Assembly (NCBI GenBank): GCA_031289115.1
Contig: JAITQC010000155.1
Span: 1 to 40,449, forward strand
Reading direction: 5' to 3'
From: Planctomycetota bacterium
Lineage (GTDB): Bacteria > Planctomycetota > SZUA-567
DNA: 40,449 nucleotides
Both the position numbers and the translations under genes were made by a program. Numbering within the stretch: the stretch's first letter is position 1; each line of letters opens with the position of its first letter. This document shows positions 27,370-32,809 of this stretch, one piece after another. The notes under the pieces were generated by a model. It had not been told where the DNA came from and did not search any database. It saw only the letters and a program-made list of their open reading frames with translations.

Positions 27370-27682
27370 GGTAGCGCGAAAGTTACTTCCGCAAAGCGGA
27401 GGATTACGACTGGAAGCACCTTAACGCCCTGAACGATTACAACGAAGCGGAGAAATATCTGTGCGGCGTGTTTCAGAAGCGATTTGACCCGAGTAGTATC
27501 CCCGCCGCCAAGTGGCGGCAGGAGCGCGAAACGCACGTGCGGGAAAAGGGCGGGCTGAATATCGAATACGCCATTTGAAAGACCGCATCGCCGAGGTTGA
27601 ACGTTTCAGAAAGTACGCCGAGGACGTGCAGAGAGTGATTAGCCTGTCGCAGAAAAAGCAAATTCTCGAAATAGATTTATAG
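27370..27682 (+). pseudogene. Decayed gene fragment, possibly a relaxase/mobilisation protein C-terminus
   Basis: Open reading RESYFRKAEDYDWKHLNALNDYNEAEKYLCGVFQKRFDPSSIPAAKWRQERETHVREKGGLNIEYA, then a frame change to HLKDRIAEVERFRKYAEDVQRVISLSQKKQILEIDL*. No start codon. Confidence 0.4.
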
Positions 27683-27777: not shown

Positions 27778-28476
27778 CTAAGTGTTCAAGTAACCATCAT
27801 CATCGTGATACTTCTTCATTCCATCAAGCAACCCTGTCAAGAACCCATAAGTTTGGTTTCTGATTTCGATCAAATCCTCAAGCGAATAATCCCGACCGCA
27901 CTCGGAAAACGATAAAGTTCCATGTGCAAGCAAATTGCGTTTAGTTTTTACGTCGCTTAGTCGCTCACCGCCTTTGCATGTACGGTCTGGCTTAAAACCA
28001 ATTCCGTGATTATTGCAAACTTGCCGAATCTCTTCAGCATCTAAATTCCCGCTGATATGTAGCGCCTCTCGGTTAAGCTCAATAATTTCGCCCGTCAATA
28101 TTGAATTGACAATTTCCAATGCCTTGTCCTTGTAAGAGACATAATGAGCCATTTGGTCATAGACTTGTTTAAACTTGTAAGAGAACCAAATATCTTGAAT
28201 CTCTTTCCGAACGGTCGAGTAAGTCGCGCCATTGGCTTTTAACTTGTCGTAGATTTCTTCAATACCGTTACGCACGGTCGATTCGACGAGGTTGTAAATC
28301 ATAAGCAAGGCATTGGCTTTCAAAATTTTCAGGAAGTCGTCTTGCCTATACTTCTTGGCTGGCTCAACGGAACTCCCGAAAGATTGGGTTAATTCTTTGT
28401 CCAGTTGCCCGAGCGCATCGTAGTACAAATCAATTTCAGCAACGCGATTTGTATATGTGTCATGAGTTAACTGCAT
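27778..28476 (-). CDS. HEPN-like nuclease of the MAE_28990/MAE_18760 type
   Basis: R-x4-H motif in KRNLLAHGTLSF (27922..27939) in an all-helical protein (ANALLMIYNLVESTVRNGIEEIYDKL). Overlaps the end of the DUF262 gene. Confidence 0.8.
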   Translation of the reverse strand: MQLTHDTYTNRVAEIDLYYDALGQLDKELTQSFGSSVEPAKKYRQDDFLKILKANALLMIYNLVESTVRNGIEEIYDKLKANGATYSTVRKEIQDIWFSYKFKQVYDQMAHYVSYKDKALEIVNSILTGEIIELNREALHISGNLDAEEIRQVCNNHGIGFKPDRTCKGGERLSDVKTKRNLLAHGTLSFSECGRDYSLEDLIEIRNQTYGFLTGLLDGMKKYHDDDGYLNT

Positions 28477-29560
28477 CCGTGCGTTCCTTTCCGAATACAA
28501 GCATATCTTTCACATATTCTATCCGCCCTATTACGCGGCTTTTATTATTGCTTGCATGGGTAGTGGTATGATACTTAAAACGCTTACCATATTTTGTGCT
28601 AATATCAGACCAATTGGTAGGGACAGCAGGAGTCAAATCATTTTTCTCCCTCAATGCCAATGCCACACCCACCGCTATCGCTTCAAAGCGCGCACGAGGT
28701 ACGAATTTGCCGTTAGCGCTTCGCCTGAACCCATTAGGGAAATACTTGTCAACAAAGTCAAGCATCGCGTCAAACTCAGCTTCGAAAGCCTCCTTATCAA
28801 ACTGGTTTTTATGACTCTCAACAAAATCGTCCAAGAATTCACTTACTTCGTGTTCAAATGCCTGATAATTGTTGGTATACGCGAAGAAACGCGTTATCAA
28901 TTCAATATCTTCGTAGCGTTTTTTGGAGTCAACGCTAATCGGACACAACTTCTCAAAAAGGGACTTCTTTGAACACTTGGTCATAAATAGCATAAACTCG
29001 CCGGTGTATGCCCCTCGCCTTATTTCAGTTGGCTTCAAATCCAAAGCTGACGAATTGATTCTGTTAAAAATCTCCGCCCTTACTTCAAGTGATGTCCCTT
29101 CCTCCAATACAATGATACGCAAGGTGGTTTTGCTAAATTTGCGTTGGATAGGTGGCGGGAGCTTAGCGAACGTAAAACCGTTTAGTTTTGTGAGTTTTTT
29201 TAAGCCCGACAATACTAAATCGTTACTCAAAAATGCCTCCAATGTAGATATCCGTTGCGCCCCGTCAACAATGTCACAACGTCCATCGTCATTGTCGGAG
29301 AAAAACATAAACGGAATCGGATAACCAAGCAGTATGGACTCAACAAACCGACATCTGCGAGCATCGTCCCAAACAAAATTTCTTTGATAATCAGGGTTGA
29401 TGAAGTACTCCCCAGCCATAAACTGTGCGACCAAAAAATCTATGGCGTAGTCGCGGGTATTATAGTCAACTTCACGGCGCAAGTCCTTAATTTGATTGGT
29501 TATGCTAACGTTTTTGCTGGTTGCGATAGCGTTTGTGCCTGTTATTTTGTTATTGCTCAT
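28460..29560 (-). CDS. DUF262 domain protein (no C-terminal HNH/DUF1524 domain seen)
   Basis: FINPDYQRNFVWDDARRCRFVESILLGYPIPFMFF and VDGAQRISTLEAF (DGxQR-type motif at 29252..29266). Confidence 0.88.
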   Translation of the reverse strand: MSNNKITGTNAIATSKNVSITNQIKDLRREVDYNTRDYAIDFLVAQFMAGEYFINPDYQRNFVWDDARRCRFVESILLGYPIPFMFFSDNDDGRCDIVDGAQRISTLEAFLSNDLVLSGLKKLTKLNGFTFAKLPPPIQRKFSKTTLRIIVLEEGTSLEVRAEIFNRINSSALDLKPTEIRRGAYTGEFMLFMTKCSKKSLFEKLCPISVDSKKRYEDIELITRFFAYTNNYQAFEHEVSEFLDDFVESHKNQFDKEAFEAEFDAMLDFVDKYFPNGFRRSANGKFVPRARFEAIAVGVALALREKNDLTPAVPTNWSDISTKYGKRFKYHTTTHASNNKSRVIGRIEYVKDMLVFGKERTDAVNS

Positions 29561-30644
29561 CGCCGTTTACCTCCGCAATATGATTTAACATACTTTTGCC
29601 AATTGCTCTGCCTAACTCGACAGGAACGGCGTTGCCGATATGCCCTCCGATCTTTCGTCGATTGAACTCCTGCTCAGGGTCAACGAACGCATAGTAAGGC
29701 GGGAACGATTGCAATAATGCCCCCTCACGCAAAGTCAATGCCCTATCCTGCTCAGGGTGTCCAAAACGCCCATTACCGTAGCCATAAAACTGTGTTGTGA
29801 TTGTCGGAGATGGTGAATCCCAGCACATACGCCCGTAAATAGATATATATGATTTGCCGCTACTTTTTTTATGGCATTTCAGTTTTAGATTATCGTCCCA
29901 ATCATGCCAAGTTCCACTGGGAACTGAACTGCGTATTCTGCGCAGATTTGTAGCCGAAAGCCGTGCGGCTGTGTGCAAAAAATCCATTTGATTGTTCACC
30001 CCGGCCGCTATGCGCGGTAAATCTCCAATACTCCCCCTAACAGTAGGATAGTCTTTTTCCTTGTGCAAAGGCTCAATGAGTGTTAAATCACCTAACCTTG
30101 ATGCTAATAACACTAAACGGCTACGGTTCTGAGGCACACCATACTCGGGGCAATAAATTACCTTGTAGTTGGCTTTATAGCCAAGTTGTTTTAGGATGTC
30201 GAGGAAGTCCGCAAACACCTGTTCATCAGCCAACTCAGGTACATTTTCCATTGAAATAATATCCGGTAAAACATGTCTTGCTATATCCGCAAACGAATTG
30301 AGCAGTTTCCATTTGTTGTCGCGCTGCCACTCGTCTTTCTCACGTCCACCATTTTGCTCGCCTTTACGATAACGTTTTGTGTATTTTGAAAATGGCTGAC
30401 AAGGAGCGCAACCGACCAGTATACGCAGTGCGTTTTTGGGATATAATGCCGTCACTTCTTCGGGGCGCAACAAAGAAACATCTGCCGAAACAAACCGGGT
30501 GTTTTGGTTGTTGTGTTCGTAGGCATATCGACAGGAAGCGTCCAAGTCAATACCTGCCACAACATTAAGTCCGGCAAGACGCAACCCATGTGTCAGTCCA
30601 CCGATACCGCAGAATAAATCTACTACTGTTGGCTTTGTTCCCAT
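29550..30644 (-). CDS. DNA (cytosine-5-)-methyltransferase
   Basis: VVDLFCGIGGLTHGL (I), GCAPCQPFS (IV, 30387..30404), ISMENVPEL (VI), YGVPQNRSRLVLLASR (VIII), and IGNAVPVELGRAIG near the C-terminus (X). Confidence 0.95.
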   Translation of the reverse strand: MGTKPTVVDLFCGIGGLTHGLRLAGLNVVAGIDLDASCRYAYEHNNQNTRFVSADVSLLRPEEVTALYPKNALRILVGCAPCQPFSKYTKRYRKGEQNGGREKDEWQRDNKWKLLNSFADIARHVLPDIISMENVPELADEQVFADFLDILKQLGYKANYKVIYCPEYGVPQNRSRLVLLASRLGDLTLIEPLHKEKDYPTVRGSIGDLPRIAAGVNNQMDFLHTAARLSATNLRRIRSSVPSGTWHDWDDNLKLKCHKKSSGKSYISIYGRMCWDSPSPTITTQFYGYGNGRFGHPEQDRALTLREGALLQSFPPYYAFVDPEQEFNRRKIGGHIGNAVPVELGRAIGKSMLNHIAEVNGDEQ

Positions 30645-30884: not shown

Positions 30885-32250
30885 CTTGGGCGAAATGGAA
30901 ATTCTGGTCCGGAGCCGATTCGGGAAAAGGGCGACAGATTGTCAACCCGAGCAAGAGTATATTTTCCCATGTTGTGGGCAAACGAACCGGCGGCGAGCGA
31001 GCACACAGAGTCCGTACCCTGGTGTAGTCTGCCAACCGGATGGCTAGTTAGTAAATTTTCCCAGTTCCCGGCATATTTGCCAAGCAAAACAGCAAATTCA
31101 GCCTGAATGGCAGCCAACGCGATGGCAAACTCTGAAAACGCGCACGGGACGCCTACGTTGATGACACTAAGGGAAAGATTCCTGATCTTCACCTCGTTAT
31201 GGTGAAGTCAGACCGCCTCCCGGATGTTTGCGATCAGCTCGTTCTGTTAGGTCTCTTCTTTTTCCTGCTCCGGAAAAACAGCGGCGTTAAAAATCTTCAC
31301 CCCGCTGTGGCCGATTCAGTTTGCCGGTTCGCACTGGTTGCCGCACACGACAATTCTGGAAACAAACGTGCCATGCTTTTGGGAAAAGACATCGGCTGCT
31401 AAGGCGACCTCCGCCCACCGTGAAGCCACGGTTTTAGTAGTTCGATCGGAGCAATGCCGAATGCAGTACCCCTACCATCGCGTACTTCCTACTAGGAGCG
31501 GAATGCATCATAGAAAACGCTGTCCTCTACTTGGACTATATCCTGGGAAAGCTTGTACCTAGGCATGGGCTCAACAGAGTAGAAAGCTGAGAAAATATCA
31601 TCGCGCTCAATAGTTTGAAGCGCAGCCAGCGAAAATCCGTGCAATTTGTAAATGTGCAAATACTCGCTGTACCGGGTTTTTTTAAAGGCAATGCGGTGTC
31701 TCCGGAGGTACAACTCGAAATTTTCGGCAATAGCGGTATCTAGGTCATGATCATTGAAATTGATCAGTCTCACCTTCACATTAGTTTTCTCTTCGTTTAT
31801 GGCGACATAGGGAGTAAAGGGGCTAAGCTTCTCCAGGCAAGAGATCGCTCTTGGAAACGCTTCGGGTCTTCGTAGCCGGTCACCCACCTCATTCGCATCG
31901 GCGGTATCACATATTTTAACCAACAACTCAGTGTCGCCGTAAAGCCCAATAATGTTATTTTTCTGGGGAAACTGGAACAGGGACACTATGTCATGGCGCC
32001 GCGAATTGGCCGTCGCATCTTCACAAATCTTCGCCTTGAACACCACGGGAATGATCGACTGCGTTGTAAGCATTTTCTCAATTAGCGGCGTGACCGTGGC
32101 AAAATCCGCGGCAAGTTTTTCCGCCCTTAAGAACAAATCCTCCCCTTGTAATACCCAAGGCGGAATTATCTGCCTTCCCACTCCTTTGGTCCGCCGCGTA
32201 TCATTCTGGTGGGGCTGGGACATCTTGATAGGCAACCGGTCTTTTCGCAT
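30885..32250 (-). pseudogene. Decayed subtilisin-like (S8) serine peptidase gene
   Basis: N-terminal domain intact (252 aa, 31492..32250), then a stop. Downstream, in different frames: YAMVGVLHS / GIAPIELLKPWL (catalytic Asp region), KHGTFVSRIVV (catalytic His region, 31358..31375), NELIANIREAV*LHHNEVKIRNLSLSV, and SPFSRIGSGPEF. Confidence 0.8.
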
Positions 32251-32314
32251 GGCTTGCCCTCCTGCCTGATGCGACAGTCGTTTCGCTATTCCCTGGATTT
32301 TTCGCGGAGTGATT

Positions 32315-32809
32315 TTATTCGAGTTGGAAAAGCGTGCTAAGCAGGTGGGTACCGGCGCGGGTGCGGAAAATCTTGTCCCGCACCGAGAGGATTGCCGGGG
32401 TTGCCATCTTCCCCTCGTCACAGTTGACCAGGAAATCCGCTTCCACCAGGATTTGGTAATCCAGGGCGTCAATTTGGCTGTACTCGTGGTGATGGGCGAT
32501 CAGGAAACAGACCCGGTCAATCCGTTCCGGTGGCAGTGACTGCCGCGACAGTATCTCCCGCGCCAGGGGTGGGCCCTCGATTTGCTGGTACTGCCCATCG
32601 GCGGAGTAATACTTGGATAAACTTGGCTTTATCCCGATATCGTGGAGTATGGTGGCCACTTGGAGCCAAGCCAGGTCCTCCGGGGACATGCCTTCGGCCA
32701 GGCCGATTATTTGAGCGTATCCTGTCACCTTGAGAAGGTGGTTAAAGCGATGGCGGTCAGGATCGAAGGCGAGTATGTCCTGAAAAAGCTGGTAGATGTC
32801 AACAGCCAT
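32315..32809 (-). CDS. HD-domain phosphohydrolase
   Basis: HRFNHLLKVTGYAQIIG...ATILHDIGIKPSLSKY...RVCFLIAHHHEYSQ. Confidence 0.85.
   Translation of the reverse strand: MAVDIYQLFQDILAFDPDRHRFNHLLKVTGYAQIIGLAEGMSPEDLAWLQVATILHDIGIKPSLSKYYSADGQYQQIEGPPLAREILSRQSLPPERIDRVCFLIAHHHEYSQIDALDYQILVEADFLVNCDEGKMATPAILSVRDKIFRTRAGTHLLSTLFQLE

What the first reader, a model, noticed from the sequence alone, without database searches (positions are those of the whole stretch)
27778..30644. Compact C5-methyltransferase / DUF262 / HEPN operon without a recognisable restriction enzyme: candidate defence module
Seen: three minus-strand genes with overlapping ends. The methyltransferase stop overlaps the DUF262 start by 11 nt, and the DUF262 stop overlaps the HEPN start by 17 nt. 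Key motifs look intact: PCQ, ENV and QNRxR in the methyltransferase, DGAQR in the DUF262 protein, R-N-L-L-A-H in the HEPN protein. The DUF262 protein (366 aa) shows no C-terminal HNH/DUF1524 nuclease domain of the GmrSD type. Known: DUF262 proteins occur in modification-dependent and other anti-phage systems, and R-x4-H HEPN proteins are commonly RNases or toxins. Inference: DNA modification marks self, DUF262 senses DNA state, and the HEPN protein is the effector, possibly abortive. This would differ from a standard type II R-M system.
Basis: partly seen in the sequence, partly recalled or inferred. Interest (0 to 1): 0.78.

Follow-up and report, generated by a model that had tools for sequence, protein, structure and literature searches.

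The report
Methylation-linked RNase defence operon
Three overlapping bacterial genes, a DNA-marking enzyme, a sensor-like protein and a likely RNA-cutting toxin, form a widespread anti-virus module whose gene arrangement was noted in 2013 and which, as far as I could find, has never been tested.

Summary
In detail: coordinates, 11- and 17-nt overlaps and all motifs check out. It is a real, mobile, recurring module. Of 80 genome loci collected only by DUF262 similarity, 78 have a PF18737 HEPN gene directly downstream and 74 a C5 methyltransferase (MTase) beside it; most remaining cases are contig edges or masked sequence. DUF262 and HEPN co-diverge tightly (r = 0.87). The MTase is a looser partner (r = 0.32), replaced by other C5 subfamilies several times; in some genomes the pair sits in DISARM-like or Druantia-like loci. 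The likeliest reading: DUF262 is a ParB-fold NTPase sensor, HEPN an RNase effector, and the MTase marks self DNA. Which DNA state triggers it is unproven. Losing the MTase before the effectors is about as common as the reverse, so strict antidote logic is not supported, and a licensing model stays open. The arrangement is not new: Anantharaman 2013 lists MAE_28990 HEPN 'in operon with a ParB nuclease and DNA methylase genes', and PD-T4-2 is a tested DUF262 + HEPN anti-T4 system. New member of a known, untested kind; the exchangeable MTase and the embedding in larger systems appear unreported.

The parts
29550..30644 (-). C5-cytosine DNA methyltransferase, 364 aa from ATG 30644 (388 aa from GTG 30716); motifs GCAPCQPF, MENVPE, PQNRSR
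   Evidence: PF00145 7.9e-52; PADLOC DrmMII 2.2e-91 and MTase_II 9e-85; conserved target-recognition region in the canonical family
28460..29560 (-). DUF262 / GmrS-N protein, 366 aa, DGAQR motif, helical C-terminal half without a nuclease domain; predicted ParB/Srx-fold NTPase sensor
   Evidence: PF03235 4.6e-26; PADLOC NsnA 6.7e-65 and PD-T4-2_A 2e-38; DG[ASTV]QR in 94/94 relatives; AF2 pLDDT 90.1, Foldseek BrxU and ParB-CDP/CTP
27778..28476 (-). MAE_28990-family HEPN protein, 232 aa from ATG 28476 (240 aa from TTG 28500), RNLLAHG motif; predicted RNase effector
   Evidence: PF18737 3.7e-21, PF18735 4.7e-8, both over cut-off; R, N, H and G of RNxxxHG at least 97% conserved in 91 relatives while mean column conservation is 47%; AF2 pLDDT 94.5
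29550..29560 (-). 11-nt overlap of MTase stop and DUF262 start (translational coupling likely)
   Evidence: sequence
28460..28476 (-). 17-nt overlap of DUF262 stop and HEPN start
   Evidence: sequence; at most a 20-nt gap or an overlap between DUF262 and HEPN in 92 of 95 loci

Best explanation
A horizontally acquired anti-phage module of the DUF262-HEPN type. DUF262 (ParB/sulfiredoxin-fold NTPase with DGAQR pocket) and the HEPN protein act as one unit: DUF262 senses a DNA state and holds or releases the HEPN protein, a predicted metal-independent RNase (R-x4-H) that stops translation in the infected cell. The C5 methyltransferase marks the host's own DNA so that resident DNA does not set off the pair; unmarked phage DNA does. 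It would work like a restriction-modification system whose effector cuts RNA rather than DNA. Shown: gene content, co-evolution of DUF262 and HEPN, conserved active-site motifs, association with C5 MTases, mobility. Inferred: RNase activity, sensing of unmethylated DNA, abortive outcome.
For: Co-occurrence 78/80 HEPN and 74/80 C5 MTase in loci chosen on DUF262 alone; in the phylum sample, all 3 HEPN hits sit beside DUF262. DUF262-HEPN distance correlation 0.87, MTase-DUF262 0.32 overall and 0.73 within the canonical MTase type. The adjacent MTase is of the C5 class although the subfamily changes (canonical, alternative, divergent) several times on the DUF262 tree; this points to 5mC as what matters. 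The target-recognition region is as conserved (0.53-0.57) as the catalytic core (0.52) in the canonical type, so one target is probably kept. Vsr genes, which repair 5mC deamination, accompany several loci (L014; L016, L078; L035, L119), implying the host genome is methylated. DUF262-HEPN pairs without MTase branch outside the MTase-bearing clade, so the MTase was probably added to an older pair. DUF262 fold matches BrxU and CTP-bound ParB. Plasmid, prophage and low-GC context; none of 15 same-family genomes has the HEPN. A DUF262 + HEPN system (PD-T4-2) gives tested T4 defence.
Against: The MTase can be lost with DUF262-HEPN intact: frameshifted in P2-like phage P24B2 and identical E. coli prophages, absent in L006, L054, L094; effector-first decay is no more frequent (L045, L065, L083, L090). 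Host Dcm or another MTase could stand in, but this was not shown. The HEPN model has no solved-structure match below E 1e-3, so RNase activity rests on the motif and family. If DUF262 read a specific unmethylated site, MTase swaps would need matching changes, which were not tested.
Confidence: 0.55

Rival explanations
1. Modification-licensed system, as in SspABCD-SspE: DUF262 binds the host's own 5mC-marked DNA, hydrolyses NTP and thereby arms the HEPN effector; without the MTase the system is simply off.
For: SspE's DUF262 is activated by the host's phosphorothioate mark (PMC10952713). MTase loss with intact effectors is tolerated in several genomes and decay is about symmetrical. Several C5 MTase subfamilies can serve.
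Against: DUF262-HEPN pairs without any MTase persist (L006 in 8 E. coli genomes at 100% identity, L120-L123), which would be useless under strict licensing. How non-self would be told from self is then unclear.
Confidence: 0.17
2. Ordinary type II-like restriction: DUF262 or the DUF262-HEPN complex cleaves unmethylated DNA directly, and HEPN is a subunit or DNase.
For: One PADLOC 'Type II restriction enzyme' model matches all 16 DUF262 proteins (about 1e-12). Anantharaman 2013 called this ParB-type protein a 'ParB nuclease'.
Against: No known nuclease domain in sequence or fold; the conserved DGxQR is the NTP pocket of DUF262 NTPases. The only strongly conserved catalytic-type motif in the partner is the R-x4-H of HEPN RNases.
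Confidence: 0.13
3. Back-up suicide arm: DUF262-HEPN guards a neighbouring methylation-based defence and fires when it is disabled, as PrrC does for EcoprrI.
For: The pair sits inside DISARM-like (DrmA/DrmB/DrmMI) and Druantia II-like (DruE2) loci next to a C5 MTase and Vsr. Anantharaman 2013 proposed this role for HEPN in R-M systems.
Against: In the window and most relatives the MTase is alone, with no other restriction component to guard.
Confidence: 0.1
4. DUF262-HEPN detects phage DNA modification or another phage cue, as PD-T4-2 may against T4, and the MTase is a separate accessory.
For: MTase-less pairs exist and PD-T4-2 acts on T4, whose DNA carries glucosyl-hmC.
Against: MTase association in 74/80 loci, repeated replacement by other C5 MTases rather than plain loss.
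Confidence: 0.08

Closest known systems
MAE_28990 HEPN + ParB (DUF262) + DNA methylase operons of Anantharaman et al. 2013 (PMC3710099, Table 1)
   Same: Same three gene families in one operon, catalytic HEPN motif
   Different: There only a table entry; no mechanism or experiment for this type, no account of MTase exchange
PD-T4-2 (Vassallo et al. 2022, PMC9519451)
   Same: Short DUF262 protein (PD-T4-2_A model 2e-38) with a HEPN protein; anti-phage activity tested natively and in K-12
   Different: Two genes without MTase; HEPN classed as PF18735 rather than PF18737
Menshen (NsnA-NsnB-NsnC)
   Same: DUF262 protein is best matched by NsnA (6.7e-65)
   Different: No NsnB (AAA/DUF3696) or NsnC; HEPN instead. 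The mapping of the names NsnABC to Menshen is from memory
GmrSD / BrxU / SspE
   Same: DUF262 domain with DG(A/Q)QR-type NTP pocket; BrxU is the best PDB fold match
   Different: No DUF1524/HNH nuclease domain
DISARM / Druantia II C5 MTases
   Same: Window MTase matches DrmMII (2.2e-91) and DruM models
   Different: No Drm or Dru genes among the window genes scanned; in other genomes DUF262-HEPN does sit inside such loci

Membership tests
MAE_28990 HEPN / ParB / methylase operon (Anantharaman 2013) | HEPN of the MAE_28990 family with active-site motif | tested here: met
   PF18737 3.7e-21; RNLLAHG
MAE_28990 HEPN / ParB / methylase operon (Anantharaman 2013) | In operon with ParB-type (DUF262) protein and DNA methylase | tested here: met
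   overlapping genes; ParB/Srx fold; PF00145
PD-T4-2 | DUF262 component of PD-T4-2_A type | tested here: met
   PADLOC PD-T4-2_A 2e-38, though NsnA scores higher
PD-T4-2 | HEPN partner of PF18735 type, two-gene system without MTase | tested here: not met
   PF18735 only second to PF18737; no PADLOC PD-T4-2 HEPN match; MTase present
PD-T4-2 | Protection against T4 | not testable with these tools
   needs phage assay
Menshen | NsnA plus NsnB and NsnC | tested here: not met
   Only NsnA-like DUF262; compare true NsnABC in L124
GmrSD type IV restriction | DUF262 plus DUF1524/HNH nuclease | tested here: not met
   DUF262 met, no DUF1524/HNH in sequence or fold
Type II restriction-modification | C5 methyltransferase | tested here: met
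   PF00145 with all main motifs
Type II restriction-modification | Cognate DNA-cleaving endonuclease | tested here: inconclusive
   No known nuclease fold; a weak PADLOC REase_II match of DUF262 (1.2e-12)
Type II restriction-modification | Effector harmful without methylation | tested here: inconclusive
   MTase-first and effector-first decay about equal
HEPN RNases | R-x4-6-H motif conserved | tested here: met
   at least 97% conserved R, N, H in 91 relatives
HEPN RNases | RNA cleavage | not testable with these tools
   needs biochemistry
DISARM | DrmA, DrmB and MTase | tested here: not met
   MTase matches DrmMII but no Drm genes in the stretches scanned around the operon

The most novel reading that the evidence does not exclude
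A methylation-based immune module whose effector is an RNase: a ParB-fold NTPase switch reads the C5-methylation state of DNA and unleashes a HEPN RNase, with an exchangeable C5 methyltransferase that is its own gene in most genomes and is shared with DISARM- or Druantia-type loci in others.
Probability: 0.45. Interest if true: 0.8.

Novelty: new member of a known kind. Interest (0 to 1): 0.55.

Why it matters
If the sensing model holds, self-marking by 5mC would be read by a ParB-type NTPase to trigger RNA cleavage, joining restriction-modification and abortive infection in a 3-kb portable module present in at least ten phyla, on plasmids and in P2-like prophages. It makes the open question of what DUF262 NTPases sense directly testable, since deletion of one gene (the MTase) separates the antidote, licensing and accessory models.

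Tried and rejected
Viral-contig scan with the single DUF262 protein gave no relatives. PDB sequence and fold searches of the HEPN protein gave nothing significant; in the viral library only another MAE_28990 HEPN matched. NsnA was at first unexplained in the literature search; PADLOC NsnB/NsnC hits in L124 tied it to Menshen. The 2025 Menshen paper (PMC12065111) is not held, so whether it mentions HEPN or MTase variants is unknown. The idea that MTase loss is always last (strict R-M logic) was tested and not supported. A remnant at 27375-27575 looked like a relaxase tail, but no match was found in plasmids or elsewhere in the genome: dropped. Promoter and terminator scans were at chance level.

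Full report
OBSERVATION. The three genes lie where stated, on the minus strand, with overlaps of 11 and 17 nt and intact motifs. Families: PF00145 (MTase), PF03235 (DUF262/GmrSD_N), PF18737 (HEPN_MAE_28990). The stretch has 42-47% G+C against mostly 51-64% elsewhere in the window. None of 15 sampled genomes of the same family has the HEPN gene; only 3 of 392 in the phylum do. This points to horizontal gain.

CO-OCCURRENCE. I aligned 16 DUF262 relatives, most of them taken from plasmids and phages by DUF262 similarity alone, and scanned GTDB genomes; the best 80 of 407 relatives were kept. HMM annotation of these 80 shows a HEPN gene directly downstream in 78; of the two others L056 is masked by N there and L045 lacks it. 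A C5 MTase is adjacent in 74: 62 of the canonical type, 8 of an alternative and 4 of a divergent subfamily. Of the other six, L035 has an MTase 1.3 kb beyond the HEPN gene, L046 is cut at the contig edge with the MTase tail visible, L081 starts at a contig edge (an MTase fragment lies elsewhere in its genome), L075 is decayed, and only L054 and L094 truly lack it. The host phyla include Bacillota, Cyanobacteriota, Bacteroidota, Planctomycetota, Acidobacteriota, Spirochaetota, Verrucomicrobiota, Myxococcota, Thermodesulfobacteriota and Pseudomonadota, plus Actinomycetota plasmids.

WHO BELONGS WITH WHOM. Pairwise distances correlate at 0.87 for DUF262-HEPN but 0.32 for DUF262-MTase (0.73 within the canonical MTase type). 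On the DUF262 tree the MTase subfamily changes several times: one supported clade of 11 has no canonical MTase at all, and there are separate changes at L092, L074+L078 and L016. The MTase also changes place (upstream same strand, or downstream opposite strand). So DUF262-HEPN is the core and the C5 MTase an exchangeable partner. With DUF262-HEPN pairs that lack an MTase (L120-L123, L006) and a Menshen DUF262 as outgroup, the MTase-bearing group nests inside: the MTase joined an older two-gene system (quick tree with long branches, so treat as tentative).

LARGER SYSTEMS. In L119 (the genome of L003) the pair lies between DrmA/DrmB and DrmMI genes, with a C5 MTase and Vsr nearby; L033 has DrmA-DrmB-x-DUF262-HEPN-MTase; L074 has a DrmD/DrmA-like helicase; L078 has DruE2-MTase-DUF262-HEPN-Vsr. 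Vsr also occurs in L014, L016 and L035 (in L016 and L078 read from the sequence, not scanned). Vsr repairs mismatches from deaminated 5mC, so its presence suggests that the host DNA is methylated (inference).

STRUCTURE AND MOTIFS. DUF262: AF2 pLDDT 90.1; Foldseek hits BrxU (2.3e-4, prob 1.0), ParB with CDP/CTP, sulfiredoxin; the C-terminal half is helical with no nuclease match. DG[ASTV]QR in 94/94. HEPN: AF2 pLDDT 94.5, R, N, H, G of RNxxxHG at least 97% conserved in a family that otherwise averages 47% per column. The canonical MTase's target-recognition region is as conserved as its catalytic core, so the group probably shares one target, unidentified here.

MECHANISM. Best reading: sensor (DUF262) plus RNase effector (HEPN) plus self-mark (MTase). 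What is shown is architecture, co-evolution and motif conservation. What is inferred is RNase activity, activation by unmethylated DNA and an abortive outcome. The main weakness: MTase loss is tolerated. P2-like phage P24B2 and identical E. coli prophages carry a frameshifted MTase with intact DUF262 and HEPN, while related prophages have it intact; a plasmid version without MTase is 100% identical in 8 E. coli genomes. E. coli's own Dcm might stand in, which I could not test. Counting all loci, MTase-first loss (L003, L006, L012, L054, L094) is about as common as effector-first decay (L045, L065, L083, L090). This leaves SspE-like licensing open.

PRIOR ART. Anantharaman et al. 2013 (PMC3710099) list MAE_28990 HEPN as active and 'in operon with a ParB nuclease and DNA methylase genes', name DUF262 as ParB, and propose suicidal RNase action of HEPN in R-M systems. 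Vassallo et al. 2022 (PMC9519451) show PD-T4-2 defends against T4; Mariano and Blower 2023 (PMC10952713) list it with DUF262 and PF18735 HEPN. Searches for papers joining the families found no experimental study of the three-gene type, but subscription journals, preprints and the 2025 Menshen paper were not available.

VERDICT. Real, conserved and probably defensive; a new member of a known but untested kind. The exchange of C5 MTases, the tight DUF262-HEPN pairing and the embedding in DISARM- and Druantia-like loci are the parts that look unreported.

Noticed in passing
31492-32472 (-): Truncated ietS-like gene: matches only the first 243 of 781 positions of PADLOC IetS (4.4e-55); no IetA family hit among the neighbouring genes scanned. 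Remnant of another defence system next to the operon.
   Followed up: partly
L119, L033, L074, L078: DUF262-HEPN pairs sit inside DISARM-like (DrmA/DrmB/DrmMI/DrmD) or Druantia II-like (DruE2) loci beside a C5 MTase, often with Vsr.
   Followed up: partly
L012, L128-L130: P2-like E. coli prophages carry the module between the portal and replication endonuclease genes; in one lineage the MTase is frameshifted while DUF262 and HEPN stay intact.
   Followed up: partly
L035:7168-8025 (-): Unidentified 285-aa protein between Vsr and a C5 MTase next to DUF262-HEPN; no Pfam match. Possibly a restriction enzyme.
   Followed up: no
L065:6238-7718 (+): Tandem broken copies of the HEPN gene with an intact MTase.
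   Followed up: no
G000:C171:1-624 (L133): A second, partial C5 methyltransferase at a contig edge of the window's own genome.
   Followed up: no
27375-27575 (+): 67-aa open stretch that looks like a gene remnant between the rRNA methylase gene and the operon; no match in plasmids or elsewhere in the genome.
   Followed up: partly
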